Below are positions 22,648 through 46,990 of a DNA stretch of 52,109 bases, in pieces. The notes beneath the pieces were generated by a model. That model was given only the letters and a program-made list of their open reading frames with translations. It had not been told where the DNA came from and made no database searches. How positions within the stretch are numbered: the first letter of the stretch is position 1; each line of letters starts with the position of its first letter. Made by a program: the position numbers and the translations under genes. The DNA is from Lachnospiraceae bacterium (GTDB taxonomy: Bacteria > Bacillota > Clostridia > Lachnospirales > Lachnospiraceae), in contig JAFZVZ010000033.1 in assembly GCA_017617545.1 (NCBI GenBank), positions 1 to 52,109 on the forward strand. The letters are read 5' to 3'.

Positions 22648-22658
22648 GGTGAATGACT

Positions 22659-26175: not shown

Positions 26176-26188
26176 AGGAGGATAACGT

Positions 26189-26923: not shown

Positions 26924-26933
26924 GAGATTTAGC

Positions 26934-28784: not shown

Positions 28785-28807
28785 CGAAGCGATACGGAGG
28801 CAAGACA

Positions 28808-29239
28808 ATGGCAAATTCGGACAGCAGAAGTTTTCTGGGAACCGGGTTCAGTTTTCCGGTCAGGGTGGATCCCAACACCGGCAAGGTGGAAACCGCTTCG
28901 AATGATGATGATATCCGGGAATCCATACGGATCATCCTCGGGACGCAGCCCGGCGAGCGGCCGATGTGCCCTGAGTTCGGGTGCGCCATCAACCGGTTTG
29001 TGTTCGGAACGACGGACTACACTTCGATCATGCTGATGAAGCAGGCGGTGGAGAGTGCGCTCGTCATGTGGGAGCCGAGGATCAAGAATATCGAAGTGAG
29101 TATCGATCATGCTCCCGACGAGGACGGTCTGTTGCTGATCAAGATCGGTTACACGGTGAGAGCGACCAACAACCCGTTCAACCTCGTGTATCCGTTCTAC
29201 ATCAGCGAGGGCTACAACGAAGCGGCTATGGTGAAATGA
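28808..29239 (+). CDS. gp25-like baseplate wedge protein
   Basis: A 143-residue protein of the GPW/gp25 family: FLGTGFSFPVRVD start, a DDIRESIRIILGTQPGERPMCP helix-turn with the conserved PGERPMxPEFG, then a FVFGTTD segment and ENKNIEVS-like strand pairs. gp25 nucleates sheath assembly at the baseplate, so its presence implies that a sheath protein exists somewhere, although none is encoded in this window. Confidence 0.9.
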   Translation: MANSDSRSFLGTGFSFPVRVDPNTGKVETASNDDDIRESIRIILGTQPGERPMCPEFGCAINRFVFGTTDYTSIMLMKQAVESALVMWEPRIKNIEVSIDHAPDEDGLLLIKIGYTVRATNNPFNLVYPFYISEGYNEAAMVK

Positions 29240-29289
29240 CCCGAAACGGGTTTTGAGAAATATCAGGCGACCGAAAGGAACATAAGCAA

Positions 29290-32238: not shown

Positions 32239-32315
32239 CATTTTACGCTTGTTAATAAAACCCGGAGGCGTCGTTTACACGGCGTGTCCGAGATGAACCG
32301 ATAGGGAGCAACACG

Positions 32316-34370
32316 ATGTTACCTGATCTTGATCTTGACAATGAACGCTACGACGATATCCTCGAGAACGCCAGGAATATGATCGTGAGCACGTACCCGG
32401 GGTGGACGGATTTCAACTACCACGACCCCGGTATTACCATGCTTGAAATGTTCGCCTGGCTCAAGGAGATCCAGCAGTATTATCTGAACCGGATCGGACC
32501 CGAGAATATTGAAAAATACCTGAAGCTGATGGGTATCCGACGTCGCACGAAGAAGCCTTCCAAAACGATGGTGAGCTTCCGGCACGATAACGACATCGTG
32601 ACGGGGCAGGGCACGAAGCTGTACGCCGGCAACATCTGCTTTGAGTCCGACCGAAGGACGTATGTTTCCTCCGCGCAGATCGTCTGCTGCATCTGCAGGC
32701 ACGGTAAGAACGATCACATCGTGGAGGGCGGGGAGCTTTCCTTCGGAGGAAGCCTTCGCATCAATCCGTTTCCGGCGGAGGGCACGGGAGAGTTCCTGAT
32801 CGGGTTTGACAGGCCGCTGCAGAGTGACGAGGATCATCTGATCTATTTCGGGCTGGGAGACCGGGGAACCGTGCCGCGCAATCCGGTGACCGATCCCGAA
32901 AGCTTCATCCCCCTCACGGATATTGCGGCGGAGTACTACAACGGGGCGTCCTGGAAACCGATGGAGTTTGTCGACGGAACAAATGGGTTCCTGAATTCGG
33001 GAAGCATTCAATTCCGGCTCGACTCGGAGCATGCGAGCAGCAAGGTGCTCGGCAGAAAGGCCTACTTTATCCGGTTCCGGCTGGTCGGCGGCGAGTTCGA
33101 TGAACTGCCGACGATCCGGAGCATCAAGTTCAACCTTCTGCCGGTGACGCAGAGAGACACCCTTGCGGAATGCTTTGATTTTCCGGTATCGAACAAGATC
33201 ACGATCCTCAGCGAGCTCTCGGTGACGGGAGTCAGCGATATCTGGTTCCGCGGAAGCGACGGTCTCTTCACAGCGGTGAACAGCTTTGAGAAGAGACTTG
33301 ATCAGGTAACGGGAGCTGTTACGTTTAAAATACCCGGTGTGAAGGACGCGACGTCAATCCGGATCGCCAATCTCTCCGTAGACCATCTTGACAAATTGGA
33401 GGTCGGCTTCGGAACGGGACTTCCGTATCAGGAATACGATCTCGGGGATACGGGTTTAGAGTATGAGACGTTCACTCTCATGACCGAGCTGCCCGCGAGC
33501 GGCGGACGGTATGTGGAGTGGAAGAAGGTGAGGGATTTCTCATCTGCGGGAAGTGACGATTTTGTCTACGTCTTCGACAGCAGCAGAGGCGTCATCCGCT
33601 TCGGCGACTGCGTCAGAGGCATGGCACCCGAGGGACGGATCTTTGTGGTGGGCTGCTCACAGACGCTGGGGGCTGACGGAAACGTGTCAGCCGGCAAGAT
33701 CAACCGGCTCGGAGCCGGCGGCAATGACGAGATCGTCCTGTCCAATCCCTTCCGCTCCGAGGGAGGTTTCGCGGAGGAGACGGACGAGGAGTGCTGTGTG
33801 CGGGCGTTTCGGAAGCTTCGGTCCACGGAGACACTTGTCACCGATGAGGACTGTGAGAACTTTATCTCCAACGTGCAGGGACTCAAGATCGAAAAATGTA
33901 AGGTGATCCGCATGGAGGGCCAGGCCGACAACGTGACTTCGGTGGTCGTGCGGCCGTACTCGCCGGACGGGCGCGGCGTGCCCTGTGAGCGGTACATCAA
34001 GAATATACTTGCAGCGGTGGAACCCCGAAGGCTGTTAGGAACGAAGTTTAGGATCGTGCGGCCCGAGTATTCGGCGGTGACCGTGTTCGCAGATGTGCTT
34101 GTCTCGCGGAGCGCTTCCGACGCGAGGGAGACAGTTCAGCGGACGATCACAGAATTTTTCGGATCGCTGCGCGACTGCTTCGGCGCGAAGATCATTTACA
34201 GCCGGCTGTATGAGCTGATCGACCGGCTCGACTGTGTGCTGAATGTCAACATGCTGACGCTGGAGACCGACGGAAGCGGAGCGAAACACACGCGGGAGGG
34301 AGACCTTCTGCTGTCGCCGAATGTATCGGCGTATCTTGACGAGACCGATCTGATGATCGGGATCGGATGA
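32316..34370 (+). CDS. Baseplate J-like wedge protein 2 (Pvc12-like)
   Basis: A 684-residue second baseplate J protein. N-terminus: LPDLDLDNERYDDILENARN, PGWTDFNYHDPGITMLEMFAW (the HDPG motif of this family). C-terminal half: SSRGVIRFGDCVRGMAPEG, NRLGAGGNDEIVLSNPF, DEECCVRAFRKLRSTETLVT and a CKVIRMEGQADNVTSVVV block. Pairs with the 982-residue wedge protein. GGGAGC precedes the ATG. The short spacer 32239-32315 has no gene. Confidence 0.9.
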   Translation: MLPDLDLDNERYDDILENARNMIVSTYPGWTDFNYHDPGITMLEMFAWLKEIQQYYLNRIGPENIEKYLKLMGIRRRTKKPSKTMVSFRHDNDIVTGQGTKLYAGNICFESDRRTYVSSAQIVCCICRHGKNDHIVEGGELSFGGSLRINPFPAEGTGEFLIGFDRPLQSDEDHLIYFGLGDRGTVPRNPVTDPESFIPLTDIAAEYYNGASWKPMEFVDGTNGFLNSGSIQFRLDSEHASSKVLGRKAYFIRFRLVGGEFDELPTIRSIKFNLLPVTQRDTLAECFDFPVSNKITILSELSVTGVSDIWFRGSDGLFTAVNSFEKRLDQVTGAVTFKIPGVKDATSIRIANLSVDHLDKLEVGFGTGLPYQEYDLGDTGLEYETFTLMTELPASGGRYVEWKKVRDFSSAGSDDFVYVFDSSRGVIRFGDCVRGMAPEGRIFVVGCSQTLGADGNVSAGKINRLGAGGNDEIVLSNPFRSEGGFAEETDEECCVRAFRKLRSTETLVTDEDCENFISNVQGLKIEKCKVIRMEGQADNVTSVVVRPYSPDGRGVPCERYIKNILAAVEPRRLLGTKFRIVRPEYSAVTVFADVLVSRSASDARETVQRTITEFFGSLRDCFGAKIIYSRLYELIDRLDCVLNVNMLTLETDGSGAKHTREGDLLLSPNVSAYLDETDLMIGIG

Positions 34371-34388
34371 CACGAAGGAACATGAAAT

Positions 34389-35552
34389 ATGAGAGAGAAA
34401 CTGAAGTATTTCATAATCAACAAAGCCTACGATTACAACCGCGGCTTTTTTGAGAACATGACCGTGCGCGACAACGAGCTGTGTTTCTCCACGGACAATG
34501 ACTCCGGCGTCGGACGGTTTCTGACGCGGGTGTTCGACTCGGGGGAGCGCGGCATGAACTGGCACCGCCTTGTGATCAACGCGGAGGACTGCGAGCCGGA
34601 GGCGCTGCGGGTTACCGTGTACGCGTGCGACGGAGGCACGGTCCGATACCGGGGAGACACAATGCCGCTTGAGGAGTTTATGGCTCTCGACGGGATACCG
34701 TTGGAGGAGCGGCTGACGGCACTTGAGCCATACGCGGTTAAGAAGGTATCCGGGGTGACCGATGTGCTGCTGCATTACGTCAGCGGGCGGTTCTTCTGGG
34801 CTTACATCGAGTTGTACAGCCCGGGAGGAGGGAGGATCGCGAGGATCAACAACATCCGGATCTATCTTCCCTCGGAATCGTGGATCGATCATTTGCCGGC
34901 GATCTACCGCACCGGAGACGGAGAGACACATTTCCTGGAACGGTACCTCGGCATTTTCCAGACCTTCTACGAGGAACTGGACTACGAGATCGCCAATATC
35001 GCGAACCGGTTCGACCCGGAATGCGCCGAGGCAGAATTCCTGGAATGGCTTGCAAGCTGGCTCAATATCCGGGACACGAAGATCTGGTCCGAGGAGCAGA
35101 TGCGAAAGCTTCTGATGCGGGCGGTCAGCCTGTACCGAAGGCGAGGTACGAAGGAGAGCCTGTCGGAGATGATCGAACTCTATACCGGCGAGAAGCCATT
35201 CATCATCGAGGGCTCCGATGTCGGCGAGCTGGCGGACCGGGCAGAGTTTAAGGATCTGATGTCATCGCTGTACGGTGCCGATCCATCCACCGTGACCGTG
35301 CTTGTTCAGCCGGGACACGACACGGAGGTGATCAAGAGGATAGCGATGGAGATGCTGCCGGTCACGGCGGAATTGAACCTGATCGAACTGGATCCTTACA
35401 TTTCTCTCGGCAAGCACGCATACCTCGGTGTGAACAGCGGTATCGGAGCATTCAAGACAGCGGTGCTTGACGGAAAATCAAGGCTCACGATGACGACACT
35501 CGGAGGAACGGAAGAAAACGGCGAGACAGACGGATCGCCGACGGAATCATAA
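34389..35552 (+). CDS. Phage tail protein I-like baseplate protein
   Basis: A 387-residue protein. The region from ~residue 160 to 310 matches tail protein I of contractile systems: LPAIYRTGDGETHFLERYL, QTFYEELDYEIANIANRFDP, FLEWLASWLNI, LLMRAVSLYRRRGTKESL and YTGEKPFIIE. The N-terminal ~150 residues are a beta-rich eCIS-type extension. It joins the wedge to peripheral baseplate parts. Confidence 0.88.
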   Translation: MREKLKYFIINKAYDYNRGFFENMTVRDNELCFSTDNDSGVGRFLTRVFDSGERGMNWHRLVINAEDCEPEALRVTVYACDGGTVRYRGDTMPLEEFMALDGIPLEERLTALEPYAVKKVSGVTDVLLHYVSGRFFWAYIELYSPGGGRIARINNIRIYLPSESWIDHLPAIYRTGDGETHFLERYLGIFQTFYEELDYEIANIANRFDPECAEAEFLEWLASWLNIRDTKIWSEEQMRKLLMRAVSLYRRRGTKESLSEMIELYTGEKPFIIEGSDVGELADRAEFKDLMSSLYGADPSTVTVLVQPGHDTEVIKRIAMEMLPVTAELNLIELDPYISLGKHAYLGVNSGIGAFKTAVLDGKSRLTMTTLGGTEENGETDGSPTES

Positions 35553-35600: not shown

Positions 35601-37310
35601 ATGAAAAATACTCAGCTCTATCCCTTTGAAAGGACCAAGTACTACTACGGAATGCTCTTGAACGTTGATGATTTCAATGCGGAGCAGAGATACATGAATG
35701 ATAAGCGCAGGCTGGTCAACCGCCTCATCCACGGGATGGGTGTCGTGTGTGGTCTGAATGTCGTCCGGCTGGACGACAGCACGATCTCGGTCGAAAGCGG
35801 CATGGCCCTCGACAATACGGGCCGGGAGATCGTGGTCGATGTGCCGGTGACGAAGAAGCTCTCCATGATCAACGGGTATGAATCCGCGATGAACAGCGGA
35901 AGCAATGCCTACGTTTATCTCTGCCTGGAATACAGCGAAGGAGAGCGAGGAGCATCCTACAGCATTGCGGATGGCGACGGCAAGGCGCCGAACGGCAAGA
36001 TCCGTGAGAATTTCAACCTCTATCTCACCTCCTCGGAGCCCGATGACAGCATCGATCAGGTGCGTGATTTCAGCGAGCAGACCGTGACAGTGTTCAGCAA
36101 TGATCAGCTCTGCATCCGCCACATCACGCCGCGGTATGTCAACCCGATGATGCCGGTGGAGCTTCGGGTGGAGATTGAGACGTTTACCAAGCAGTTTGCA
36201 GCATTTTCCTATGATGTCCAGCTCGTCTGCATGAACAACGAGGAGGACGAGAGCTCTGTGCTCACCGTCAAGTTCAACGAATCGCTCTTCGACAAGAGCG
36301 GCCGCTACACGCTTGTTTACAAGCTTCGGGCGACCAACGTAACCGACACGACCGGAACGATCAAGGTTGACCCGTCCACCTTTACGCTCGCCTTCGACAA
36401 GGTTCCCGCGACCGGAACGATAGCGGGAAGTTCCTCTGTCTCGATCATTTCGGAAGGCGTTGAGGATGCGGCAATCCGCGCATGCTATGAGCGCGACATG
36501 GATACGCTTCTTCGCAGCACTATGGGACACCGGCTGTATCTCGCCAGGATCAATCTCGTGAACGCGGGTGACACGGCGATCATCGAGGATGTCCTGAACG
36601 TTCCGTTCCGGCAGTATGTGGCGGGAAGCGTGATGCTGAGCGCCATGCATCGGATGCATCGCTTCACCGGCGGCAGCGCGGAGGGTAAGCCCGCGGAGAG
36701 CGGAAACGCCGTGATCCCGAGAGCTTCGGACAAGGATGTTGCGAGCGGTATCTGCAGGATCGACCTGAGCTCCGGCAGCCTCAAGAACAAGGTGTTCTTC
36801 TCGGAGGAGATCACGCACGGTCTCGGTCTCGGCAGTGTCACGATCCAGCTCGGCATCATTACGTCTGACAAGAAGACGGTCTACGGGGATCCGAAGATCT
36901 TCAAGGAGGATTGCCCGCAGCTTGTTCTCGGCGCTAAGACGGATCCCTCGAGAGGAAGCTTTGTCATCGGTGCGATGACGATCGCGACCGTGCTCGACGA
37001 TTATGTCGACGTCAAATGGACGGCGATCCGCGATGCGGACGAGACCGTCAGCGAGAAGAACAACATGAAGATCATGATCAAGCCGAATTCGCTGATCATC
37101 AAGCCGAAGGAAAACCGGTACCTCGAGGCGGTCTGCGTCAACATGACCAACAAGACGGTGCGCTGGTCAGTCGTTCCCGAGACGGGCGGCAGCATCGACC
37201 AGAACGGCCTTTACACGGCGCCGGCGTCCGAAGGTGTCTACGAGGTTGTAGCCCAGAGCGCGGCGTACCCTGAGGTCAAGGCTTCCATCATGGTTGTCGT
37301 GCGTGATTGA
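35601..37310 (+). CDS. Conserved eCIS baseplate-associated protein with Ig-like end
   Basis: A 569-residue protein of a family that I know only as an unnamed member of eCIS loci, recognised by its N-terminus: ERTKYYYGMLLNVDDFNAEQ, YMNDKRRLVNRLIHGMGVVCGL. The next ~430 residues are beta-rich with no clear domain. The last ~90 residues look like a bacterial Ig-like fold (IIKPKENRYLEAVC, VRWSVVPETGGSIDQNGLYTAP). No receptor-binding fibre gene is present in the window, so this or its Ig-like tail could be surface exposed; that is a guess. Confidence 0.65.
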   Translation: MKNTQLYPFERTKYYYGMLLNVDDFNAEQRYMNDKRRLVNRLIHGMGVVCGLNVVRLDDSTISVESGMALDNTGREIVVDVPVTKKLSMINGYESAMNSGSNAYVYLCLEYSEGERGASYSIADGDGKAPNGKIRENFNLYLTSSEPDDSIDQVRDFSEQTVTVFSNDQLCIRHITPRYVNPMMPVELRVEIETFTKQFAAFSYDVQLVCMNNEEDESSVLTVKFNESLFDKSGRYTLVYKLRATNVTDTTGTIKVDPSTFTLAFDKVPATGTIAGSSSVSIISEGVEDAAIRACYERDMDTLLRSTMGHRLYLARINLVNAGDTAIIEDVLNVPFRQYVAGSVMLSAMHRMHRFTGGSAEGKPAESGNAVIPRASDKDVASGICRIDLSSGSLKNKVFFSEEITHGLGLGSVTIQLGIITSDKKTVYGDPKIFKEDCPQLVLGAKTDPSRGSFVIGAMTIATVLDDYVDVKWTAIRDADETVSEKNNMKIMIKPNSLIIKPKENRYLEAVCVNMTNKTVRWSVVPETGGSIDQNGLYTAPASEGVYEVVAQSAAYPEVKASIMVVVRD

Positions 37311-37389: not shown

Positions 37390-38238
37390 ATGGTCAGTAC
37401 CTTTGAGCACGATTATCCCATCACGGGTGTCAGGGAAACCAATGAGGTGTATGACAGCTACCTTTGCCGTAATGTTGCCGGAGGAGGTCTCTGCAGCATC
37501 CTGTGTATACATGACAGAAGCTGTTTCCCGTCGCTTGTCGGTTGGCTGACGGAGGTGGTGGATCCCCGGGCGTTCACGGATTTTATCGAATATTTCAACT
37601 TCAACGACGATCTGTGCATCGTCATGAAATACAAACAGGGGCTTTCTCTGGAGAAGAAGCTCGCGACGGAGGCATTAACTCTTGCGGAGCGGCTGGAGCT
37701 CGGACGGAAAATTCTGGAACGGGCGGTGCTCCAGGAGATCCCCGAGTACTTCCTCGACAAATGCTTCTCCCCGGATTGCATCATGGTCGAGCCGGATCTG
37801 ACGGTCAGCTTCAACTATCCGATCGAGGATATCATGGGTGACCGGCAGTGCTCGGTGAAGGACAACATCGAGAGGGTAATGCGGCTGCTGTTTGACAGAG
37901 AGCTGCAGCGCAAGGTTCCGACGGTTCTCATTGAGTTCATCGACCGCCTTCCCGAGTTGACCGAGGGGAGCATCATCGATCTGTACAGCGAGTATTACGC
38001 GCTGTGCATGGCGCTGGAGGGCTACGGCACGGATTCGGAGCTGCCGAGGACGTTCAGCTTCCGGTTCTGGGAAGGCTTCAAAAAGGTGTTCGGGAAGGTC
38101 AAGACGGTGTTTATCGTCCTGCTGGTTCTGGTTGCCTTTGCGTATCTGTTTTATACAATGTTCGACCCGGGCAAGAGCAAGGTGAAGGACCCGCAGTTTG
38201 ACCGGATCGGTACCGTTCAGATTGATAAGAATAGGTGA
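37390..38238 (+). CDS. Membrane-anchored pseudokinase-like protein in the CIS locus
   Basis: A 282-residue protein. Residues ~10-215 follow the Ser/Thr kinase layout: an N-lobe-like start, a hinge-like DDLCIVMKYKQGLSLEKKL near residue 78, an alpha-E-like helix, then FSPDCIMVEPDLTVSFNY near residue 125, which aligns with HRDLKPENIMV...DFG. The catalytic Asp and Asn are Cys, and DFG is replaced (NYP), so it should be inactive. One membrane segment lies at ~236-258 with a short tail outside. The layout (cytoplasmic kinase fold plus C-terminal membrane helix) recalls T6SS PpkA. AAGGAGG precedes the ATG. The MORN gene starts seven bases after its stop. Confidence 0.65.
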   Translation: MVSTFEHDYPITGVRETNEVYDSYLCRNVAGGGLCSILCIHDRSCFPSLVGWLTEVVDPRAFTDFIEYFNFNDDLCIVMKYKQGLSLEKKLATEALTLAERLELGRKILERAVLQEIPEYFLDKCFSPDCIMVEPDLTVSFNYPIEDIMGDRQCSVKDNIERVMRLLFDRELQRKVPTVLIEFIDRLPELTEGSIIDLYSEYYALCMALEGYGTDSELPRTFSFRFWEGFKKVFGKVKTVFIVLLVLVAFAYLFYTMFDPGKSKVKDPQFDRIGTVQIDKNR

Positions 38239-38245
38239 TGTGAAG

Positions 38246-40429
38246 ATGAATTTTGATCTGCTGTCAGCATTCAAGCTGTTCTTTAAAAAATTTCAGCGTA
38301 TCTTCGTTACACCCGTAACGCTTGCATTCCGCGGGCTTCTTCGGAAAATGAACCCGCAGAATATCGCGGGCAAGGTTGCCGGAGATGTCAAGGACGGCGT
38401 CAAGGGCATTACCAAGAAGCCGAATGACATCAAGCAGTACGCGGTGATCGGAGACCGGTATGTCGCGAAGAAGCTGCTCGCTCTGCTGATCATCGTTCTG
38501 ATCGCCATAGTGGTCTGTTTCATTAAGTTCGTGAACCCGTGGCTGGTGAGTAAGTATTTTACGAAGTCCATGTGGATCAACAGCGCAGAATGTGCCGGAT
38601 ACTCCGGCAAGGTCCGGTTGTATGACAACATCGACCACGATGTGCTCCTCTTTGAGGGAAGACTCAACGAGGGCAAGGTTGACGGAGAGGGAACGCTGTA
38701 TGACGCGTACGGCCATCTCGTGTACAGCGGAGAGTTTGTCTCGGGCGAGTACTCGGGCAACGGCAAGCTCTATTTCCTCGACGGATCGCTGCAGTACGAG
38801 GGCGGTTTTTCCTCCAACCTTCGGGAAGGAACGGGAACGGAATACTTCCAAAACGGCGGGATCAGCTATGTCGGAGGATATTCGGCCGGGCTGTATTCCG
38901 AGAGCGGCAAGCTGTATGACCGGGGAACCGGACGGCTTCTGTACGAGGGAGGCTTTTCCAACGGGCTGTATAACGGCAACGGCACACTGTACGATCCCGC
39001 CACCCAGAGGATCGTGTACAGCGGAGGGTTTGTGAACGGTGTGATCGACGGAAAAGGAACGCTGTATGACAACGGAAATATCCTGTATGAGGGAGAATTT
39101 TCCGAGGCAATATATAACGGCGAAGGCAAGCTTTATGTCGACGGAAAATTAAGAAAAGAAGGCACATTCAACAACGGTGTCCTGAACGGAAGCGGCAAGC
39201 AGTACGACGCGAACTACCTGATGTACGAGGGCGAGTTCACGAACGACCAGTACAACGGCAAGGGCAGGGAGTACAAGTCCGGCAAGTTGTACTACGACGG
39301 GGATTTCGCCATGGGCGTGCGGCAGGGCCAGGGCACGTTCTACAACAGCGATGGCGTCGTGATCGGCAGCGGTACCGTCAGCGGCGGAACCGTGATCACG
39401 GGAACAGTGACCACCTACGCAAGCACGGGGAAACCGCTCTATGTCGGGGAGGTTGTGGACAGCGTATACAACGGCGCCGGCAAGCTTTATGACGAGAGTA
39501 CGGGCGAGCTGATCTACGACGGAAACTTCAAGGACGGCGTGTACGACGGCGCCGGCAAGCTCAGAAAGAACGGCGTTCTCGTCTACGACGGCGAGTTCAC
39601 CGACGGTGTGTACAACGGCAACGGTAAGCTTTACGAGAACGGTAAGCTCCGTTACGACGGCGGCTTTGACATGGGAAAATACACGTCCGGCACGCTCTAT
39701 AATGACAACGGTGACGTCGTGGCAAGCGGTGAGATCGGCGGCGACGGTGAGGTCAAGGATGGCGAGACACGTATCCTGGACGGCAAGGGAAGGCTCGTCT
39801 ATGACGGCGAGGTCAAGGGCGGCGTCTACAACGGCAGCGGCAAGCTCTATGACCCGAGTTCGGGGAACCTGATCTACGACGGCGAGTTCAAGGACGGAAA
39901 ATACGACGGACAGGGCCTTTTGTACGAGCAGGGGGTTCTCAAGTTCGAGGGAACGTTCCGCGGAGGCAAGAAGGTCGGAACCGGAACCTATTACGACAAG
40001 GACGGCACGGTTTCCGCGAGCGGAACACTCGACGGAAACGGCAACGTGGTCACCGGAACGGTCGTGATCAAGGAGAACGGCAAGGTGAAGTACTCCGGCG
40101 AGATCCGCGATGGCAAGTATGACGGTACCGGCAAGCTGTACGACAAGAACGGCAACCTCGTGTACGAGGGCCAGTTCTCCTTCGGTTCCTACAACGGAAG
40201 CGGAAGGATCTTCAACAGCAAGGGCACGGTCATCTACGACGGCGGCTTCTACATGGGCAAGTACGACAACTACGGAAGAGAATTTTACGATAACGGCAAA
40301 CTCAAATATATCGGCGAGTTCCGTCTGGGCGAATACTACGGCAAGGGCGTGTTGTACGACAAGGATGGCAACGTAATATCTGACACGACTGTTGAGAAGA
40401 CCGACAGCGGCGCGGAAGGCGGAAACTAA
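38246..40429 (+). CDS. Membrane-anchored 24-repeat MORN protein
   Basis: A 727-residue protein. Residues 1-~74 are basic and cytoplasmic by the positive-inside rule, a membrane segment lies at ~75-100, and from about residue 125 to the end there are some 24 MORN-type repeats of 22-25 residues: [VIL]-Y-[DES]-G-[EG]-F-x2-G-x-Y-x-G-x-G-x-L-Y-D-x-x-G. Two repeats are degenerate (near residues 390 and 500). The repeat array would lie outside the membrane. MORN arrays bind lipids or proteins. ATG at 38246 is chosen because the upstream frame overlaps the pseudokinase gene. A role in tethering or docking the injection particle at the membrane is inferred. Confidence 0.82.
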   Translation: MNFDLLSAFKLFFKKFQRIFVTPVTLAFRGLLRKMNPQNIAGKVAGDVKDGVKGITKKPNDIKQYAVIGDRYVAKKLLALLIIVLIAIVVCFIKFVNPWLVSKYFTKSMWINSAECAGYSGKVRLYDNIDHDVLLFEGRLNEGKVDGEGTLYDAYGHLVYSGEFVSGEYSGNGKLYFLDGSLQYEGGFSSNLREGTGTEYFQNGGISYVGGYSAGLYSESGKLYDRGTGRLLYEGGFSNGLYNGNGTLYDPATQRIVYSGGFVNGVIDGKGTLYDNGNILYEGEFSEAIYNGEGKLYVDGKLRKEGTFNNGVLNGSGKQYDANYLMYEGEFTNDQYNGKGREYKSGKLYYDGDFAMGVRQGQGTFYNSDGVVIGSGTVSGGTVITGTVTTYASTGKPLYVGEVVDSVYNGAGKLYDESTGELIYDGNFKDGVYDGAGKLRKNGVLVYDGEFTDGVYNGNGKLYENGKLRYDGGFDMGKYTSGTLYNDNGDVVASGEIGGDGEVKDGETRILDGKGRLVYDGEVKGGVYNGSGKLYDPSSGNLIYDGEFKDGKYDGQGLLYEQGVLKFEGTFRGGKKVGTGTYYDKDGTVSASGTLDGNGNVVTGTVVIKENGKVKYSGEIRDGKYDGTGKLYDKNGNLVYEGQFSFGSYNGSGRIFNSKGTVIYDGGFYMGKYDNYGREFYDNGKLKYIGEFRLGEYYGKGVLYDKDGNVISDTTVEKTDSGAEGGN

Positions 40430-40448
40430 ACACGGAAGGACAGAAACT

Positions 40449-41021
40449 ATGCCAAACTACAATATTGTTTCGGAAACGGGAGAGGCTCTGGTGAAACTGC
40501 TTCGCGAGGGAATGGTGCCGGACATCATTCCGAACAGCGAGGGCATCGGCGTGTGCCATCCCTCCGACCGGGGGGACGTCAGTCTCGGCATTTGCCTGTA
40601 TGACATACGGCGCAACACCGACATCATCCAGACGGACAGGATTGCTGTGGGAACGGACAAGTTGAAGAGCCCGTCCTCATACGTTGATCTCTATTTCATG
40701 ATCACAGCGTACTCTTCCAGCGATATCAAGTTCCGAATGCTTGAGGAGTCGAAGATCATCGGAAGAGCGATCCAACTGCTTGAGGGCACGCCGATTTTGA
40801 AAGGCGATGTCTTCGGCAAACCGTTCAGCGATCTGACGCATGCCCCGAAGATTGAGATGCTCGACCTCGAGACCGAGGAGAAGCACCGCATCTGGAACAG
40901 CACGGAGCATCCTTACAAGCTTTCGGTATTTTACAAGGTCTACCCGATCGAGATCGAGTCCGAGAAGATCACGAGCATCACGAGAGTTGTCGAGACCGAT
41001 ATCACGGTCGGCCAGAAGTAG
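40449..41021 (+). CDS. DUF4255 (Pvc16-like) cap protein
   Basis: A 190-residue protein of the DUF4255 family, a marker of eCIS: SETGEALVKLLREGM, an LGICLYDIRRN strand, a SSYVDLYFMITAYSS core, LLEGTPILKG and a final HPYKLSVFYKVYPIEI. In PVC-like particles it terminates the tail at the end far from the baseplate. AAGGA precedes the ATG at 40449. Confidence 0.88.
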   Translation: MPNYNIVSETGEALVKLLREGMVPDIIPNSEGIGVCHPSDRGDVSLGICLYDIRRNTDIIQTDRIAVGTDKLKSPSSYVDLYFMITAYSSSDIKFRMLEESKIIGRAIQLLEGTPILKGDVFGKPFSDLTHAPKIEMLDLETEEKHRIWNSTEHPYKLSVFYKVYPIEIESEKITSITRVVETDITVGQK

Positions 41022-41058
41022 GTCGAAGCGCCGCCGATGCACATGGAAAGGAAGAGTT

Positions 41059-41811
41059 ATGGAGGAACATTTCAACATATCGAACAGGGTACGGCTTCGG
41101 ACAAGCATTGCTGTGCTCCTGCTCGACGACCTCACCGGCCTGCCGATCATCGGCAGCAACGCGAGGGCGTGGATCGAGGGACAGAAACCGCCGGTCAAGA
41201 AAAATGACGGCTGGAATGCTTTTCTGGAACTGCCCCCGGGAACGTACAACGTGACTGCGGAGGGTGGAACGTACGAGCGAAAGACGGTGCAGGTCACGGT
41301 GGATAAGCCGTTTGACACGGTTCTGCTGCGGCTCAGCCCGAACAGGCTCTACCGTGCACCGTACGACTGCATCCGCGTGGAGGGACACACGGAACCGAAC
41401 ACGGAGGTCACGGTCTATCCGCAGGGACGCCAGACGGTGTTTAAACTGCAGCGGGACTGTGCGAAGAAGGATACGACGCTTGCTGTGTACAGCAGCACGA
41501 ACACTTCTCTGCAGGGGCGGCTGTTGAAGCTTAGCTCCCCTGACGGCACGGGAGAGACGGTGCGGATCGACAAGGTCTCCGAGGATAAGCCGGGGGAATA
41601 TGTGTTGGAGACACCGGTGAAAAATGCTTATCCGAAGATCGGTACGGTGCTTGTTCCCGCCACGCAGACACGATCCGATGAGAACGGTGATTTCTTCGCG
41701 CTTGTCAAGACCGGGTCCGGCGATACGGAGGTGGTCGTTGAGGTCGCGGGAAGCGGGAAGAGGAAAACCTTTGAGCGAGGGGAAGGAAATACGATAACCG
41801 TAGCGTTATAA
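41059..41811 (+). CDS. Secondary beta-domain CIS protein (carboxypeptidase-regulatory-like folds)
   Basis: A 250-residue protein, all-beta. Residues ~15-95 look like a carboxypeptidase-regulatory/transthyretin-like fold (AVLLLDDLTGLPIIGS, GWNAFLELPPGTYNVTAEGG, VDKPFDTVLLRLSP). Residues ~100-250 hold one or two more beta domains. Proteins of this kind stand next to DUF4255 genes in some CIS loci. No membrane segment or signal is seen. Exact role unknown; a structural accessory is likely. Confidence 0.55.
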   Translation: MEEHFNISNRVRLRTSIAVLLLDDLTGLPIIGSNARAWIEGQKPPVKKNDGWNAFLELPPGTYNVTAEGGTYERKTVQVTVDKPFDTVLLRLSPNRLYRAPYDCIRVEGHTEPNTEVTVYPQGRQTVFKLQRDCAKKDTTLAVYSSTNTSLQGRLLKLSSPDGTGETVRIDKVSEDKPGEYVLETPVKNAYPKIGTVLVPATQTRSDENGDFFALVKTGSGDTEVVVEVAGSGKRKTFERGEGNTITVAL

Positions 41812-41832
41812 CGCAGATAAGGAGCGAGGAAT

Positions 41833-42219
41833 ATGGGATTTGCAGTATGTGGAGGAGCTCAGCTGATGTGCTCGTTCGGGATGGCGCCGTCGGCGCTTAA
41901 TGTGCTCCCGCAGAACAAGACACTGACAAGCGCACCGCTTGCGAACATTATGGACAACAAGCCGATGGTCAACATCATGCCGTTCGGCATGTGTACCTGC
42001 CCGTCGAACCCGACGGTGGCAGCGGCGACCGCGGCCGCGCTCGGGGTGTTGACGCCGATGCCCTGCATCCCGGCGACGGCGGCACCGTGGGCACCGGGGT
42101 GTCCGACCGTTCTGATCGCGGGTAATCCGGCGCTGAACAACACAAGCAAGCTGATGTGTTCCTACGGCGGAGTCATCCAGGTAACCAACCCGATGGCTAA
42201 TACAATACAGATCCCCTGA
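41833..42219 (+). CDS. PAAR-like DUF4280 spike-tip protein
   Basis: A 128-residue protein of the DUF4280 family, which replaces PAAR in many injection systems: FAVCGGAQLMCSFGMAPS, NIMDNKPMVNIMPFGMC, CPSNPTVAAATAAALG, PCIPATAAPWAPG and a final TSKLMCSYGGVIQV. The paired Cys and short Gly/Pro loops suit a metal-pinned tip on the gp5-like spike encoded at 28014-28784. The short spacer before the next gene holds a GGGAGGAG site. Confidence 0.9.
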   Translation: MGFAVCGGAQLMCSFGMAPSALNVLPQNKTLTSAPLANIMDNKPMVNIMPFGMCTCPSNPTVAAATAAALGVLTPMPCIPATAAPWAPGCPTVLIAGNPALNNTSKLMCSYGGVIQVTNPMANTIQIP

Positions 42220-42234
42220 CGGGAGGAGTAAACG

Positions 42235-43023
42235 ATGGAAAATGAAACCATGACGGCTCAGGCAATGACCGGGACGGAAGCGGCAATCATGAACATATAT
42301 GTCTTTTTTCCGGGAAACGGAGAGAGGACAAGCGAGGAACTGATCGAGAGGCTCAGGACGATACTAAACTGCGCAGCGCCGATCGCGGAGAAACACGGCG
42401 GGAAGATTTCCCGCGTGTCCGAGCAGGGCATCTCCGTGCTTTTCGAGGGAGGCTGCGAGAAAGCCCTGAACTGTGCGATCGGAATATGCACGGACGGCGC
42501 ACTCGTCGGGGACAGCCGCATTTCCGCGGGCTTTACCATCGGAATTCACTACGGAAGCGTGAGCATGGGAACGTTGGAATACGGCGAGTTTAAGACGTTT
42601 ATCGCAGTTTCCGCCGACAACACGATCACCCGAAGCATCAGTGAGCTGGCTGTCGGCCTGAAGGCGAGGATCCTGCTCACGGAGACCGCGGCATCGCGCA
42701 TCCGGGACTTCGGAAACCGGTACTCCTCACGCAGGCTCGGATTGATCCACAGCCGGTACGGAAATCTCGATATCGATCTGTATGATGTCTTCGAGGGTGA
42801 TCCCACGGAGAGCAAATACAAAAAGAGAAGGAGCAAGCTCTTCTTCGAAAAGGGAGTGGAGCTGTTTCTCAAGGGTGATTACATGCAGGCAAGGACCTAT
42901 TTCATCGAGTTGCTGAAGTATGACCGAAGCGATGAACCTGCCAAGAGATATGTGTTCCGCTGCGACGGGTTCATCGCGGATCCGCAGTCCGCAGACAACA
43001 GCAGGGTTCTGGCAACAATCTGA
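42235..43023 (+). CDS. Class III nucleotidyl-cyclase-like domain without metal ligands
   Basis: A 262-residue cytoplasmic protein. Residues ~17-165 follow the class III cyclase homology domain: an N-terminal strand, a long helix ending IAEKHGGKISRV, a GISVLFEGG strand, a helix, then FTIGIHYGSVSMG and a dimer-helix region. Both positions that normally hold the metal-binding Asp (F-x-D-I-x-G-F and G-D) are replaced: the first by FFPGNGERT, the second by EQG. The NTP-binding N-x-x-x-R pair is also absent. The last ~95 residues form a TPR-like helical pair. It should not make cyclic nucleotides; a binding role is likely. GGAGGAG precedes its ATG. Confidence 0.65.
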   Translation: MENETMTAQAMTGTEAAIMNIYVFFPGNGERTSEELIERLRTILNCAAPIAEKHGGKISRVSEQGISVLFEGGCEKALNCAIGICTDGALVGDSRISAGFTIGIHYGSVSMGTLEYGEFKTFIAVSADNTITRSISELAVGLKARILLTETAASRIRDFGNRYSSRRLGLIHSRYGNLDIDLYDVFEGDPTESKYKKRRSKLFFEKGVELFLKGDYMQARTYFIELLKYDRSDEPAKRYVFRCDGFIADPQSADNSRVLATI

Positions 43024-43062
43024 GTTTAGCCTTTATACATCAACGCAGGGGGCTTGTTGGGG

Positions 43063-44688
43063 ATGAAAAAATACAGCAGGATACAAGTAAAAACCATCAT
43101 CATATTTCTGCTGATGACGCTGATCGTTTCGGCTCTGATCGGAACCGTGATCTACCAGATCATATACAAAAACGCGATCAAGAGTTCCGAAAAACAGTTG
43201 CTTCGATGCAGTAAATATTCCAGTGAAATGCTCAAGGCTGAAACGCTTCAGGGCTGGATCGACAACGGCGCAGACGAAAAATACAGCGATATCCGGGAGT
43301 TTCTGGAGGATATCAAGGAATGCTTTGATCTGTCGGATCTGTTTATCTATAAGCTGAACTATGACGCCGACGGCAAATTGCTGAACGATGTTGTCTTCCT
43401 TTTTGACATTTTACCGGATCCGGATTACCGGGAGAAACCGATGATGCTCGGAGAGAGGACCAAACAGGTCGAAGAGTTCGAAGTCGTCAAAGAAGTAGCC
43501 GAATCAAAGGAACCCAGAGTGACCGATGATTTGGAGGGAGATGTGTCGGAGCGGACGCTGTTCGCGTTCGACCCGATCCTTGACAAGGACGGCAATGTGT
43601 TCGCGGTTGTATGCCTCAGCCGATCGGTACAGTTGACCCGCAAGGAAGCGCTGGCGGAGATTCTCAAGATCGCTGTCATTTACGTAGTTGTTATGACTGC
43701 GTTCGTGGTGTTCTTTATGAGCTATATGCACAGAGGGATCATCAAGCCCGTCAAGCTGCTTTCCAACCGGATGAACCACTTCGTCTCGGATTTCAATGAG
43801 CAGAGCTATATACCCGTAACGGAGATCACCACGGGAGATGAGATCGAACAGATGTCGGATGCCTACAACAAGATGTCCGAGTCTATCATCACCTACACGA
43901 ATGATCTGAAGGAGGCAACTGCCGAGCAGGAGAGACTCAAGGCAGATTTTGCGGTTGCCGAGAGCGTTCGTTCGGCAACCTCCGCGGAAATCAGCTATCC
44001 GGCCTTCCCGGAGCGCAATGATTTTGATCTTTGCGCGAGTCTGGGCAACACAGTATCCAAGAGCTGCAGCTTCTGCAATTACATCTTAAGCGATGAGGAT
44101 CATCTCTACATCGTGATCGGTGAGTCTGTAGGAAATACACTGCCGGCAATGCTGATGTCCATGCTCGCCTCGAACAGCATCCGCTGTCTGGCGAAAATGG
44201 GGTATTATCCGTATCAGATCGCTGCGGAGACAAACGATCAGCTCTGCTCGTTTGAGCGCAGTGATAACAACCTGAATGTCAGCGTTCTGATCGTGCAGAT
44301 CGATCTGAAGACGGGTGTTCTCCGCTACGTCAACGCGGGCATGCCTCCGATGCTCATCAAGCGTCCGGGCGAGGCGTTTGAGCCGGAGGAGCTTGCGATC
44401 CAGTTCAATCTCGGAGAGATGCCGGGAGTAACCTTCGACCAGAAGCAGCTGACACTGCAGCAGGGAAGCGGTATCATCCTGACGTCCTACGGTGTCTGTG
44501 ATATGAAGAACAGCGACGGAGAGCGTTTCACCACGGAACGCGTGGAGAAGGAGATCAACGATATCGCTGCCTCCAAGTATTATCTCAACGAGCTGATCGA
44601 TGAGTTTGATCAACGGCTTAATACATTCCGCGGCGACTGCGATATCGAGCGTGACACCACCGTTGTCGGCTTCCGGTATTTCGGCTGA
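43063..44688 (+). CDS. Membrane HAMP-PP2C (SpoIIE-type) pseudophosphatase
   Basis: A 541-residue protein: membrane helix ~8-30, an extracellular sensor of ~170 residues, membrane helix ~203-225, HAMP ~228-285, and a SpoIIE/RsbU-like PP2C domain ~315-540. Comparison with RsbU shows loss of metal ligands: the GD-Y motif is SCSFCNY, ADVIGKG is GESVGNT, and S-DG-V is TSYGV; only one Asp of the final DD pair remains (RDTTVV). The fold is recognisable from the FDLCASL, ANAGMPP-like VNAGMPPML and GEMPGVTFDQKQL segments. A catalytic role is unlikely. I chose ATG at 43063; a TTG nine bases upstream is also possible. Confidence 0.72.
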   Translation: MKKYSRIQVKTIIIFLLMTLIVSALIGTVIYQIIYKNAIKSSEKQLLRCSKYSSEMLKAETLQGWIDNGADEKYSDIREFLEDIKECFDLSDLFIYKLNYDADGKLLNDVVFLFDILPDPDYREKPMMLGERTKQVEEFEVVKEVAESKEPRVTDDLEGDVSERTLFAFDPILDKDGNVFAVVCLSRSVQLTRKEALAEILKIAVIYVVVMTAFVVFFMSYMHRGIIKPVKLLSNRMNHFVSDFNEQSYIPVTEITTGDEIEQMSDAYNKMSESIITYTNDLKEATAEQERLKADFAVAESVRSATSAEISYPAFPERNDFDLCASLGNTVSKSCSFCNYILSDEDHLYIVIGESVGNTLPAMLMSMLASNSIRCLAKMGYYPYQIAAETNDQLCSFERSDNNLNVSVLIVQIDLKTGVLRYVNAGMPPMLIKRPGEAFEPEELAIQFNLGEMPGVTFDQKQLTLQQGSGIILTSYGVCDMKNSDGERFTTERVEKEINDIAASKYYLNELIDEFDQRLNTFRGDCDIERDTTVVGFRYFG

Positions 44689-44758: not shown

Positions 44759-46990
44759 ATGGAAATCAACGAACTCTATGATTCATTTTTCGATCTGGGC
44801 ACCATGCTCAAGCCTTATGAGAGTGACGAGGAACACCTTCGGGAGATGTTCCGGCTGCTTGATCTGTGCTTCACCGTCGTCTCAGTCGCGAGAGGATTTT
44901 CCGGGGAAAATTTTCCGGGGAAGGATGCGACGGGCAACCTTCAGGGCTTGACGGTTGCGTCCAAGGACCTTGCGGGAGTGCTTCTCGCGGGGCGTACCGG
45001 TGACGGGTACGACGAGCTCTCGCAGGAGGCGCGGGAACAGATTGAAAATGCTTTCTTCCATGTGGCGTGCAGGTTGAAGAAGAGCAGCGCTAAGGGCATG
45101 ATCCCTCGGTTTGAGGTCGTGCGTATGAAATTCGGGCTCTCGGATCTCGAAACCTTTGCGATGCTCCTTGCTCTGGCGGCTGAGTATGACCGCCGGTACG
45201 AGAGTGTGTTTGTGTATTTGCATAACAACACCTCGGATATCTACGCGACGCCGTGGCTTGCGGTGAAACTGTACGGATACTTCTATCACGGAAACGATGC
45301 CGATGCGGCTAAACTTCTCTCCGGAAGCTCCGTGCTGACGCGCTTTTTGTGCAGCCGTGAGTTCCGCAAGAGGGAACGAAGCGAGAGCTCGCAGTGGCTT
45401 GTGCTTTCAAGAAGAGTCAGCGCGTATATTATGGGCAGAAACGCTCTTGATCCGGCATTGTCCGGGTTTGTGACGCTGCGCGACGGGGAGACGGACCCGA
45501 CGGAGCATGTTCCGGTGAGGGCGGAGCAGTTCGCGCAGGCGGAGGAGTTCTTCCGGAACAACGCATTTGCCGACGAGGGATGCTTTGTGCTCAATCTCTA
45601 CGGCCCGAAGGGCGTCGGTCGTTGCTATACGGCGATGCGTGCGACGGCTGCGGTCGGGCTGCGCATACTGCGGATCGATCTGAATAAATACTACGATTCC
45701 GTCGGATCGTTCGACGAAAAATACTTTGATATGCTCTACACGGAATCGGTTCTGGTAGGGGCAATTCCCTGCTTTGTATACGATGTTCCGTTGAATGTGA
45801 CGGACAATGAGGGCGTCTCGGCACCGTCGGCCGCCGCCGCGAGAACGGATATCGTGACGGACTATGTATCGAAACTGTTCCGTTTTGTATTCTGGGTTTC
45901 CCCGGAGAAGATCAGCATATCCTCACGCGAGGGAACGAACTGTGTGGGTATCGAACTGCCCATGCTTACCGCGAACGAGAGAAAATTGTTCTGGGAGAAG
46001 CAGCTTGCCGACACCGGACTTGACGCAGTTTCCTTCGCAAACCGCTATATCCTCACACCGCTGTACATTGAGCGTGCATGCCGTACCGCAGCGGAGTATG
46101 CGGTTACCGCAGGCCGGAGTGTGACATCTGAGGATGTCATCGAGGGTGTGAAGCAGCACTCCGTCAACCCGCTCGGAAGCTATGCCACCAGGATCAACGC
46201 CGTGTTCACATGGGACGACCTGGTTGTAAGCGAGGAACAGAAGACGAGAATGAAGATGATCTGCGACCAGGTTCGATATCGCAGCGTGGTCCACGAGGAC
46301 TGGGGCTTCCGTCGGAAGACGCCGTACGGGCGAGGGCTTTGCGCGCTATTTTACGGTTCTCCCGGAACCGGCAAGACGATGGCGGTACAGGTCATGGCCA
46401 ACGATCTCGGCCTCGACGTATACCGCATCGATCTCTCGCAGCTCACGAGCAAGTACATCGGTGAGACACAGAAAAATATCAGCCGTCTGTTCGAGCGCGC
46501 GAAGAACATCAATGCGATGCTGTTCTTCGACGAGGCAGACTCGATGTTTGCCAAGCGCTCGGAGGTCAAGGATTCCAACGATCGTTATGCCAACGCGGAC
46601 ACTGCGTTCCTGCTGCAGAAGCTGGAGGAGCATGAAGGGATCACAATCCTGGCGACAAACTACGTCAACAATATCGATGATGCATTCAAACGAAGGATCA
46701 AGTTCATGGTGAACTTCGTGTTCCCGACGGCGGATGTCAGACGCAGGCTGTGGGAGACGATACTTCCGGCCGAGGCGGTGAAGGACGAGCCGCTTGACTT
46801 TGACTTCTTCGCCGAGCGGTTTGAACTCTCGGGCAGCAATATCAAGGAAATCCTCACAAACGCGGCATTTCTCGCGGCGGCTGAGGGTACGGGAATTCGC
46901 AACAGCCACATCATCGAGGCGGTGAAGCTGAATTTTTCGAAGTATGGGAAAATCCTCACCAACGCGGATTTTGATTATCTCGGTGGGTGA
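44759..46990 (+). CDS. AAA+ ATPase of the CIS locus (Pvc15-like) with degenerate first domain
   Basis: A 743-residue ATPase. The C-terminal AAA+ module is intact: GSPGTGKT (Walker A, near residue 533), LFFDEADS (Walker B, near 587), ATNYVNNID sensor 1 and an arginine-containing FKRRIKF motif. An earlier AAA-like module near residue 282 has GPKGVGRCYT, where the Walker A Lys is Arg, and its Walker-B-like strand reads CFVYDV with no Glu, so it should not hydrolyse ATP. Pvc15-type ATPases help assemble or load the particle. AAAGGAG lies about 12 bases before the ATG. Confidence 0.87.
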   Translation: MEINELYDSFFDLGTMLKPYESDEEHLREMFRLLDLCFTVVSVARGFSGENFPGKDATGNLQGLTVASKDLAGVLLAGRTGDGYDELSQEAREQIENAFFHVACRLKKSSAKGMIPRFEVVRMKFGLSDLETFAMLLALAAEYDRRYESVFVYLHNNTSDIYATPWLAVKLYGYFYHGNDADAAKLLSGSSVLTRFLCSREFRKRERSESSQWLVLSRRVSAYIMGRNALDPALSGFVTLRDGETDPTEHVPVRAEQFAQAEEFFRNNAFADEGCFVLNLYGPKGVGRCYTAMRATAAVGLRILRIDLNKYYDSVGSFDEKYFDMLYTESVLVGAIPCFVYDVPLNVTDNEGVSAPSAAAARTDIVTDYVSKLFRFVFWVSPEKISISSREGTNCVGIELPMLTANERKLFWEKQLADTGLDAVSFANRYILTPLYIERACRTAAEYAVTAGRSVTSEDVIEGVKQHSVNPLGSYATRINAVFTWDDLVVSEEQKTRMKMICDQVRYRSVVHEDWGFRRKTPYGRGLCALFYGSPGTGKTMAVQVMANDLGLDVYRIDLSQLTSKYIGETQKNISRLFERAKNINAMLFFDEADSMFAKRSEVKDSNDRYANADTAFLLQKLEEHEGITILATNYVNNIDDAFKRRIKFMVNFVFPTADVRRRLWETILPAEAVKDEPLDFDFFAERFELSGSNIKEILTNAAFLAAAEGTGIRNSHIIEAVKLNFSKYGKILTNADFDYLGG

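What the first reader, a model, noticed from the sequence alone, without database searches (positions are those of the whole stretch)
37390..44688. Three degenerate signalling enzymes inside a contractile injection system locus
Seen: a pseudokinase (catalytic Asp and Asn replaced by Cys, no DFG) at 37390-38238, a class III cyclase-like domain lacking both metal-binding Asp at 42235-43023, and a membrane HAMP-PP2C protein lacking most metal ligands at 43063-44688. All three stand in one operon with the baseplate genes, between tail protein I and the ATPase. Known: T6SS loci can carry a real kinase/phosphatase pair (PpkA/PppA) that controls firing. Inference: here three enzyme folds may have been kept as binding or gating parts that sense a ligand, phosphorylated peptide or nucleotide and trigger or anchor the particle. 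I know of no described CIS with this trio.
Basis: partly seen in the sequence, partly recalled or inferred. Interest (0 to 1): 0.85.

Follow-up and report, generated by a model that had tools for sequence, protein, structure and literature searches.

The report
Dead-enzyme docking module of bacterial syringe
Some gut and rumen Clostridia carry a phage-tail-like syringe whose membrane-side proteins have the folds of a kinase, a cyclase and a phosphatase but have lost their active sites and stay under selection, which suggests that dead enzymes dock and trigger the syringe.

Summary
37390-38238 has a protein-kinase fold (AlphaFold pLDDT 86; Foldseek probability 1.00) without catalytic residues (Lys, catalytic Asp and Asn are Cys; DFG is NYP). 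42235-43023 is a class III cyclase fold without either metal Asp. 43063-44688 is a sensor-HAMP-SpoIIE protein keeping one of four metal Asp. The losses are family-wide: catalytic Asp in 0 of 60 kinases, both metal Asp in 0 of 62 cyclases, all four metal Asp in 0 of 44 phosphatases, against 6 of 6 and 8 of 8 in ordinary cyclases and phosphatases read as controls. dN/dS of 0.10-0.20 speaks against decay.

The pseudokinase follows the Cis13-like gene in 78 of 78 loci that reach it. The next recognised gene is mostly a membrane MORN protein; in five loci the two are fused round one membrane helix. The pseudocyclase is elsewhere the output of a sensor-HAMP receptor; in one clade of 45 that includes the window it is separate and a HAMP-SpoIIE protein is present.

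Best reading: a docking and triggering module for an envelope-bound CIS, working by binding, not catalysis, like CisA or EssB. Function is inferred. Nine paper searches gave no description.

The parts
35601..37310 (+). Cis13-like protein (N-terminal match to CIS13_fam), the gene directly upstream of the pseudokinase
   Evidence: NCBIfam NF053767 E 1.6e-19, 70.4 bits, below its 370-bit cut-off; its alignment was used to find 80 related loci
37390..38238 (+). Pseudokinase, 282 aa: kinase fold (about aa 1-210, predicted cytoplasmic), one membrane helix (about aa 222-258), short outer tail with the IGT motif
   Evidence: C39/C125/C130 for Lys/Asp/Asn, NYP for DFG
38246..40429 (+). MORN-repeat protein with one N-terminal membrane helix, repeats predicted outside; fused to the pseudokinase in five other loci
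   Evidence: PF02493 E 1.2e-36, 13 stretches; membrane helix and fusions
40449..41021 (+). Pvc16 N-terminal domain protein (CIS part)
   Evidence: PF14065 E 5.4e-24
41056..41811 (+). Carboxypeptidase-regulatory-like beta protein of the operon, function unknown
   Evidence: PF13620 E 7.9e-5, 23.4 bits, below its 32.3-bit cut-off; found in 71 of 89 loci
41833..42219 (+). DUF4280 PAAR-like protein
   Evidence: PF14107 E 3.1e-35
42235..43023 (+). Soluble pseudocyclase (class III cyclase fold without metal ligands) with a conserved C-terminal TPR-like segment
   Evidence: TPR_1 only E 0.068; no membrane helix
43063..44688 (+). Sensor-HAMP-SpoIIE protein with degenerate metal site (S, E, Y, D); membrane helices about aa 12-30 and 200-218, HAMP aa 222-275, SpoIIE aa 344-538
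44759..46990 (+). AAA ATPase with winged-helix domain, of the kind found in eCIS loci
   Evidence: PF00004 E 1.2e-29, PF22977 E 8.5e-23
22079..35552 (+). Structural part of the CIS: tube, sheath-position gene, CIS_tube, hub, spike base, gp25, baseplate J and I and others

Best explanation
It is a non-catalytic membrane docking and triggering module of a contractile injection system in monoderm Clostridia. The pseudokinase sits under the membrane next to the baseplate; through its helix, or by fusion, it is joined to the outward-facing MORN protein, giving a dock between particle and envelope. An outer sensor with HAMP passes a signal to the pseudocyclase, directly when the two are one protein, or through the degenerate SpoIIE domain in the window's clade. 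The pseudocyclase with its conserved TPR-like tail then binds the dock or the baseplate and licenses attachment or firing by a change of shape. Shown: folds, loss of active sites, conservation, gene order, fusions, purifying selection, one switch of receptor architecture. Inferred: membrane topology (hydropathy and fusion logic), the protein contacts, and the docking and firing role.
For: Active sites lost family-wide while ordinary relatives keep them: 0 of 44 vs 8 of 8 for SpoIIE, 0 of 62 vs 6 of 6 for cyclase, catalytic Asp 0 of 60 for kinase. dN/dS 0.10-0.20 for the three genes against L030 and L032. Pseudokinase directly after the Cis13-like gene in 78 of 78 loci that reach it; next recognised gene MORN in 71, fused to MORN in 5; all five fusions have one membrane helix in the part held and lack the pseudokinase's own tail motif. 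In 200 family genomes the 9 with a syntenic pseudokinase are exactly the 9 with a cyclase hit above 260 bits. 15 of 15 genomes with a separate cyclase carry a SpoIIE hit at 276-364 bits; in 17 fused-type genomes the best is 227.4 bits. The separate state is one clade, support 100/99. Distant CIS loci keep pseudokinase, cyclase and MORN side by side. Streptomyces CisA, a bitopic protein encoded just after the baseplate genes, is needed for CIS function and firing. In T6SSiv, Cis13 is said to be possibly an aid in anchoring to the inner membrane (PMC12210884, passage).
Against: No interaction, localisation or phenotype data. Topology rests on hydropathy and gene fusions. The pseudokinases of L156 (249 aa) and L200 (244 aa) show no membrane helix at my threshold, so a bitopic form is not universal. 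In L088 and L096 the SpoIIE protein is short (412 and 440 aa) with only about 50-65 residues between its two membrane helices, so no full outer sensor there. L082's genome shows no cyclase hit and none was seen in the stretch of L201 read. L048's cyclase and SpoIIE genes lie on another contig than its pseudokinase although that contig goes on. The sensors match Cache families only weakly or below cut-offs, so the ligand is unknown. Loss of aligned ligands does not exclude nucleotide binding or a new activity.
Confidence: 0.5

Rival explanations
1. A sensory and regulatory side-branch: the receptor, pseudophosphatase and pseudocyclase work as a partner-switching circuit that controls expression or assembly of the CIS, not its docking, as SpoIIE/RsbU-type proteins usually act on sigma-factor control.
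For: Sensor-HAMP-SpoIIE architecture with membrane helices; an ECF sigma factor and an HTH-TPR regulator lie upstream in the window at 17427-19239.
Against: No STAS or anti-sigma kinase domain appeared among the window ORFs scanned (not all ORFs were scanned); metal ligands are incomplete in 44 of 44; the pseudokinase stays next to the Cis13-like gene in 78 of 78 loci that reach it, also in fused-type loci without a CIS-type SpoIIE protein. The upstream sigma gene was not tested for conservation.
Confidence: 0.2
2. The proteins are enzymes after all, with ligands supplied by non-aligned residues or by a changed chemistry, as in SelO-type pseudokinases (recalled).
For: Some members keep part of a site: five SpoIIE domains keep 3 of 4 metal Asp, L090's cyclase keeps the transition-state Asn and Arg, 4 of 62 cyclases and 2 of 4 distant ones keep one metal Asp, 4 of 60 kinases keep Asp at the DFG position.
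Against: No member read keeps a full set; the positions vary within the families while structural glycines of the cyclase fold and the TPR-like tail stay.
Confidence: 0.12
3. Structural scaffold only: pseudokinase and MORN hold the particle at the envelope, and the receptor proteins are unrelated cargo or passengers of the operon.
For: Pseudokinase-MORN linkage is the tightest; the SpoIIE gene is on the other strand in four loci; the outer sensor is cut down in L088 and L096.
Against: Pseudocyclase and pseudokinase co-occur in 9 of 9 family genomes and in distant CIS loci; a HAMP receptor is present in both architectures.
Confidence: 0.15
4. Degenerate remains without function.
For: Missing catalytic residues.
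Against: dN/dS 0.10-0.20; open frames and fixed order across many loci.
Confidence: 0.03

Closest known systems
CisA of the Streptomyces coelicolor CIS (PMC12237407; passages and the Discussion read)
   Same: Single-pass membrane protein encoded just downstream of baseplate genes; proposed to bring the particle to the membrane and to act as sensor and checkpoint of firing.
   Different: CisA's cytosolic part is described as largely unstructured and its outer part as like solute-binding domains; here the inner part is a pseudokinase and the outer parts are MORN repeats and a separate sensor.
EssB/YukC of type VIIb secretion and TraF of Gram-positive type IV secretion (PMC12599244, PMC13037476; passages read)
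   Same: Transmembrane pseudokinases of Gram-positive secretion machines, described as hubs or scaffolds (TraF's hub role is postulated there).
   Different: Other machines; the window protein does not match PF10140, EssB is not among the 50 Foldseek rows shown, and PF10140 was absent from 148 class genomes.
T6SS threonine phosphorylation pathway PpkA/PppA/Fha (search listing with abstract beginnings only)
   Same: Kinase and phosphatase folds in a contractile-machine locus controlling firing.
   Different: There PpkA is an active kinase acting on threonine; here all have incomplete active sites.
Sensor-HAMP-SpoIIE (SiaA-like) phosphatases and HAMP class III cyclases
   Same: Domain order and fold.
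   Different: Metal ligands lost; part of a CIS locus.
Thylakoid-anchored CIS of Anabaena (PMC8894136; passages read)
   Same: A CIS held at a membrane of the producing cell.
   Different: There anchoring is by tail fibre and baseplate extensions; 'kinase' and 'cyclase' do not occur in its text.

Membership tests
Contractile injection system of the eCIS lineage | Tube, baseplate (gp25, J, I), spike base, Pvc16, PAAR-like tip and AAA ATPase in one locus | tested here: met
   the sheath-position gene 23335-26175 has no Pfam match
Type VI secretion system | TssJLM membrane complex and ClpV | tested here: not met
   none among the window ORFs scanned; the first 16 kb of the window were not scanned by family
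Ser/Thr protein kinase (enzyme) | VAIK Lys, HRD Asp and DFG Asp | tested here: not met
   C39, C125, N142 in the window; HRD Asp 0 of 60, DFG Asp 4 of 60, Lys 7 of 60
Protein kinase fold (pseudokinase) | Two-lobed kinase fold | tested here: met
EssB/YukC | Match to PF10140 | tested here: not met
   no hit at E up to 1; no PF10140 in 148 class genomes
Class III nucleotide cyclase (enzyme) | Two metal-binding Asp | tested here: not met
   0 of 62 CIS members and 0 of 4 distant ones have both; 6 of 6 control cyclases do
PP2C/SpoIIE phosphatase (enzyme) | Four metal-coordinating Asp (D628, D746 and D795 seen in PMC5468089; D610 recalled) | tested here: not met
   0 of 44 CIS members have all four; 8 of 8 controls do
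CisA | Bitopic protein with solute-binding-like outer domain, needed for membrane attachment and firing | tested here: inconclusive
   bitopic topology predicted, the outer part differs; function not testable here; no direct sequence comparison was made
PpkA/PppA pathway | Active kinase and phosphatase acting with an FHA protein | tested here: not met
   incomplete sites; no FHA domain in the scanned ORFs

The most novel reading that the evidence does not exclude
A sensory chain for a contractile injection system built only from dead enzymes: an outer signal runs through HAMP to a pseudophosphatase or pseudocyclase and on to a pseudokinase-MORN dock that holds and fires the particle from the producer's own envelope. 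It would be a third kind of Gram-positive secretion machine, after T7SSb (EssB) and T4SS (TraF), built round a membrane pseudokinase.
Probability: 0.4. Interest if true: 0.87.

Novelty: new variant of a known kind. Interest (0 to 1): 0.74.

Why it matters
How CIS particles of single-membrane bacteria reach the envelope, and what makes them fire, is open; CisA of Streptomyces is the described case that I read of. This module is carried by Clostridia, many of them from rumen and gut by their record titles, gives named parts to test, and offers a natural experiment: one recorded switch in which the HAMP receptor's output is a pseudophosphatase instead of a pseudocyclase while the pseudocyclase is kept. 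It also points to membrane pseudokinases as a shared solution in several Gram-positive secretion machines, and shows relatives of the pseudokinase with PKD or LysM outer domains outside CIS.

Tried and rejected
Decaying pseudogenes: spoken against by dN/dS and fixed order. A fixed trio: rejected, the SpoIIE member goes with one clade. EssB membership: rejected by PF10140. Activity hidden in some relatives: no member with a full set found. Origin of the sensor: unresolved; its profile matches fused-cyclase sensors (14-150 bits) and two ordinary SpoIIE proteins (163 bits over the whole sensor in L182; 114 bits over the HAMP side only in L181). The Foldseek answer shows only its best 50 rows, so a lower-ranked EssB match is not excluded. 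The pseudocyclase was never modelled: 13 attempts met a full queue. A4 contains one row that I trimmed wrongly and was not used for counts. G039's hit (58 aa, one in-frame stop) was dropped as chance. A metal-column reading was off at D746 and was corrected. hmmalign placed few of the ordinary kinases, so the kinase motif map rests on hhalign and on the two L165 kinases.

What the counts cover. Kinase 60: the window and 59 of the 70 separate, complete proteins of the 80 loci. SpoIIE 44: 29 of 31 hits in the 80 loci and the window (L041 and the cut copy of L055 dropped) and 15 fetched from whole genomes; L079 is cut before the fourth position. Controls: 8 of the 36 weaker SpoIIE hits, and 6 of the 42 weaker cyclase hits, were read. 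Of the 21 genomes, thirteen neighbourhoods were read.
Full report
What is there. The window is one contig (C8) of a 2.7-Mb, 45-contig genome. From 22079 to 46990 it carries a contractile injection system: T4 gp19-like tube, a 946-aa gene in the sheath position without Pfam match, CIS_tube, hub, spike base, gp25, baseplate J, Tail_P2_I, a Cis13-like protein, Pvc16_N, a PAAR-like DUF4280 protein and an AAA ATPase with winged helix. By gp25 its nearest solved relatives include 2ia7, 9gtp, 7aeb and the Anabaena All3318 protein 7b5h. The three proteins of the finding lie between Tail_P2_I and the ATPase, all on the + strand.

The pseudokinase. The single sequence has no Pfam kinase hit, but a profile of 60 homologues matches real kinases: hhalign probability 94.7 and E 6e-8, CDKL5 E 4e-4 in the PDB, and two bona fide kinases of one genome at E 7.5e-8 and 5.7e-6. 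The AlphaFold2 model (pLDDT 86, mostly above 90 in the kinase part) matches protein kinases with Foldseek probability 1.00, among them S. aureus PknB (TM 0.52). In the window the Lys, catalytic Asp and Asn are C39, C125 and C130, and DFG is NYP. Over 60 homologues the catalytic Asp is present in 0, the DFG Asp in 4, the Lys in 7. One membrane helix is predicted in 70 of 71 proteins of 255-360 aa (the other has two), followed by a tail with IG[TS] in 48 of 60. The distant L156 and L200 proteins show none.

The pseudocyclase. The single sequence has no Pfam cyclase hit; a profile of 47 homologues matches CyaB (3r5g) at E 5.4e-14 and other class III cyclases. Both metal Asp are present in 0 of 62 CIS-linked domains (58 have neither, 4 have one), in 0 of 4 distant ones (2 have one) and in 6 of 6 ordinary cyclases of the same bacterial family. 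The transition-state Arg is kept in 3 of 62 and Asn in 2 of 62. What is conserved best is the C-terminal segment with YDVxDGD, a TPR-like helix pair and EVLK...D.AAKEY.

The SpoIIE-like protein. It has two membrane helices, an outer part and a HAMP. Of four metal Asp the window keeps one (S, E, Y, D). Of 44 CIS-linked domains 0 keep all four (2 keep none, 21 one, 16 two, 5 three); 8 of 8 ordinary relatives read from such genomes keep all four. Three of the four positions were seen in PMC5468089 (passages); D610 is recalled. In L088 and L096 the protein is short and has only about 50-65 residues between its helices, so the outer sensor is cut down there.

Relatives. A scan of the genome collection (one genome for each of 84,980 species) with the Cis13-like alignment gave 396 relatives, of which the best 80 were kept; by title they are mostly Lachnospiraceae, Ruminococcus and other Oscillospiraceae and unplaced Clostridia, many from rumen and gut. 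The query came from loci that have a pseudokinase and 316 weaker relatives were not looked at, so a bias is possible. Counting 81 loci (80 and the window), the pseudokinase follows the Cis13-like gene in 78 of 78 that reach it (median gap 24 bases); the next gene of the families searched is MORN in 71, a pseudokinase-MORN fusion in 5, the cyclase in 1 (L090), and one ends there. The fusions (L061, L063, L065, L072, L106) have a single membrane helix in the part held, and lack the pseudokinase's own tail motif; the sequence round the helix is that of the MORN protein. This is the best evidence that the pseudokinase faces the cytoplasm, the MORN repeats face outward, and the two belong together.

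Co-occurrence without the Cis13 query. In 200 genomes of the family, a single-sequence search found pseudokinases in 10 (one dropped as chance), and a cyclase-profile search found full-length hits above 260 bits in the same 9 genomes. Eight more genomes have weaker cyclase hits (65-137 bits) in frames of 556-921 aa, one with stops; of these only G180 was read, and it is a distant CIS locus (L153). Distant loci L153-L156 and, outside the class, L200 keep Cis13-like, pseudokinase, cyclase and MORN in a row; L201 keeps pseudokinase and MORN, and no cyclase was seen in the stretch read. In 341 class genomes 21 have a hit of the pseudokinase profile at E up to 1e-5 (some are ordinary kinases or stand-alone pseudokinases) and in 398 phylum genomes 7 at E up to 1e-8.

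One switch of architecture. Of 81 loci, 31 show a separate cyclase with a HAMP-SpoIIE protein (27 on the same strand, 4 on the other), 17 show the sensor-HAMP fused to the cyclase, 13 a separate cyclase alone in the stretch held, and 20 neither, mostly for lack of sequence. Whole-genome searches then gave a strong SpoIIE hit (276-364 bits) in the genomes of the 13 and of L048 and L055, 15 of 15. Eight of these lie on the CIS contig itself, judged by equal contig length (L053, L055, L056, L057, L058, L059, L066, L070). In six the CIS contig ends (L060, L061, L068, L081, L091, L106). L048's cyclase and SpoIIE genes lie side by side on another contig although its CIS contig goes on. L089, L094 and L095 have no SpoIIE hit, and their cyclases lie in frames of 571-611 aa, the fused size (frames not read). 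Of 12 'neither' genomes searched 11 have the cyclase, L082's does not, and 8 were not searched. In the 17 fused-type genomes the best SpoIIE hit has 227.4 bits; the five above 190 bits were read from one place each and keep all four metal Asp (L181, L182, L186, L187, L188). One of them (L181) lies on L097's own CIS contig, about 7 kb beyond the stretch held, so an ordinary SpoIIE protein can stand near a fused-type locus. On a tree of the Cis13-like protein the separate state is one clade of 45 rows (support 100/99) and the 20 fused rows lie outside it. The tree was drawn at the midpoint and has long branches; that fused is the older state is inferred from the distant loci, whose cyclases have four membrane helices. 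So the receptor changed once, and the pseudocyclase was kept.

Selection. Against the nearest relatives L030 and L032, dN/dS is 0.10-0.14 for the pseudokinase, 0.17-0.20 for the pseudocyclase and 0.13-0.18 for the SpoIIE-like protein, beside 0.07-0.10 for the Cis13-like protein and 0.08-0.09 for the ATPase. dS is above 1 in most of these pairs, so the values are rough.

How it most likely works. PMC12237407 states that all previously studied CIS must bind a membrane before firing, and that CisA, a bitopic protein encoded just after the baseplate genes, is needed for this in Streptomyces. PMC12210884 says that Cis13 of T6SSiv may help to anchor that system to the inner membrane (passage); the pseudokinase here is the gene after a Cis13-like one. 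EssB of T7SSb and TraF of Gram-positive T4SS are transmembrane pseudokinases seen or proposed as hubs (passages). By analogy I propose that the pseudokinase with MORN docks the particle at the envelope, and that the sensor, through HAMP and a dead output domain, controls this through the pseudocyclase. Folds, losses, order, fusions, selection and the switch are shown; contacts and function are inferred.

Novelty. No paper in the library holds both 'contractile injection system' and 'pseudokinase', or it and 'MORN'. Searches with cyclase, Clostridia, eCIS-Firmicutes, EssB, Ruminococcus, T6SS and SpoIIE/PP2C terms listed none that I recognised as on this module (listings only, capped). In the eCIS survey PMC8213781 'cyclase' and 'phosphatase' do not occur; in the metagenome survey PMC12210884 'kinase', 'cyclase', 'phosphatase' and 'MORN' do not; in the pseudokinase review PMC12599244 'contractile' and 'MORN' do not. 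The library lacks most subscription papers. The CIS itself and each fold are known; the combination is a new variant.

Noticed in passing
L157, L158, L161-L164 and L159, L160: Relatives of the pseudokinase without CIS genes of the families searched nearby: pseudokinase, membrane helix, and an outer PKD domain (L162 by Pfam; the others by likeness) or LysM domains (L160 by Pfam, L159 by likeness). They may be an undescribed family of wall- or surface-facing pseudokinases.
   Followed up: partly
22079-22471: A small conserved protein with a CPHCG motif upstream of the tube gene, matched in 11 of 89 stretches (most stretches do not reach so far upstream); no clear Pfam family (Cys_rich_CPXG E 0.031).
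   Followed up: partly
L057 18604-21615; L087 18278-21211: Very long proteins downstream of the CIS genes in several relatives, with a major-facilitator domain in the two scanned; L057's also has a Cache domain.
   Followed up: no
47041-50712: Two large proteins (568 and 653 aa) after the ATPase with no convincing Pfam family; in iterated searches of the 89 loci they match only each other, so they look like paralogues special to this locus; role unknown.
   Followed up: no
17427-21243: Minus-strand genes upstream of the CIS: an ECF sigma factor, an HTH-TPR regulator, a DUF4097 protein and a HAAS protein.
   Followed up: no
L069, L073, L074, L080, L084, L090, L097, L107: In these loci the cyclase receptor is about 900 aa with four membrane helices, that is, a further N-terminal outer domain (L090 shows a weak beta-propeller match).
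   Followed up: partly
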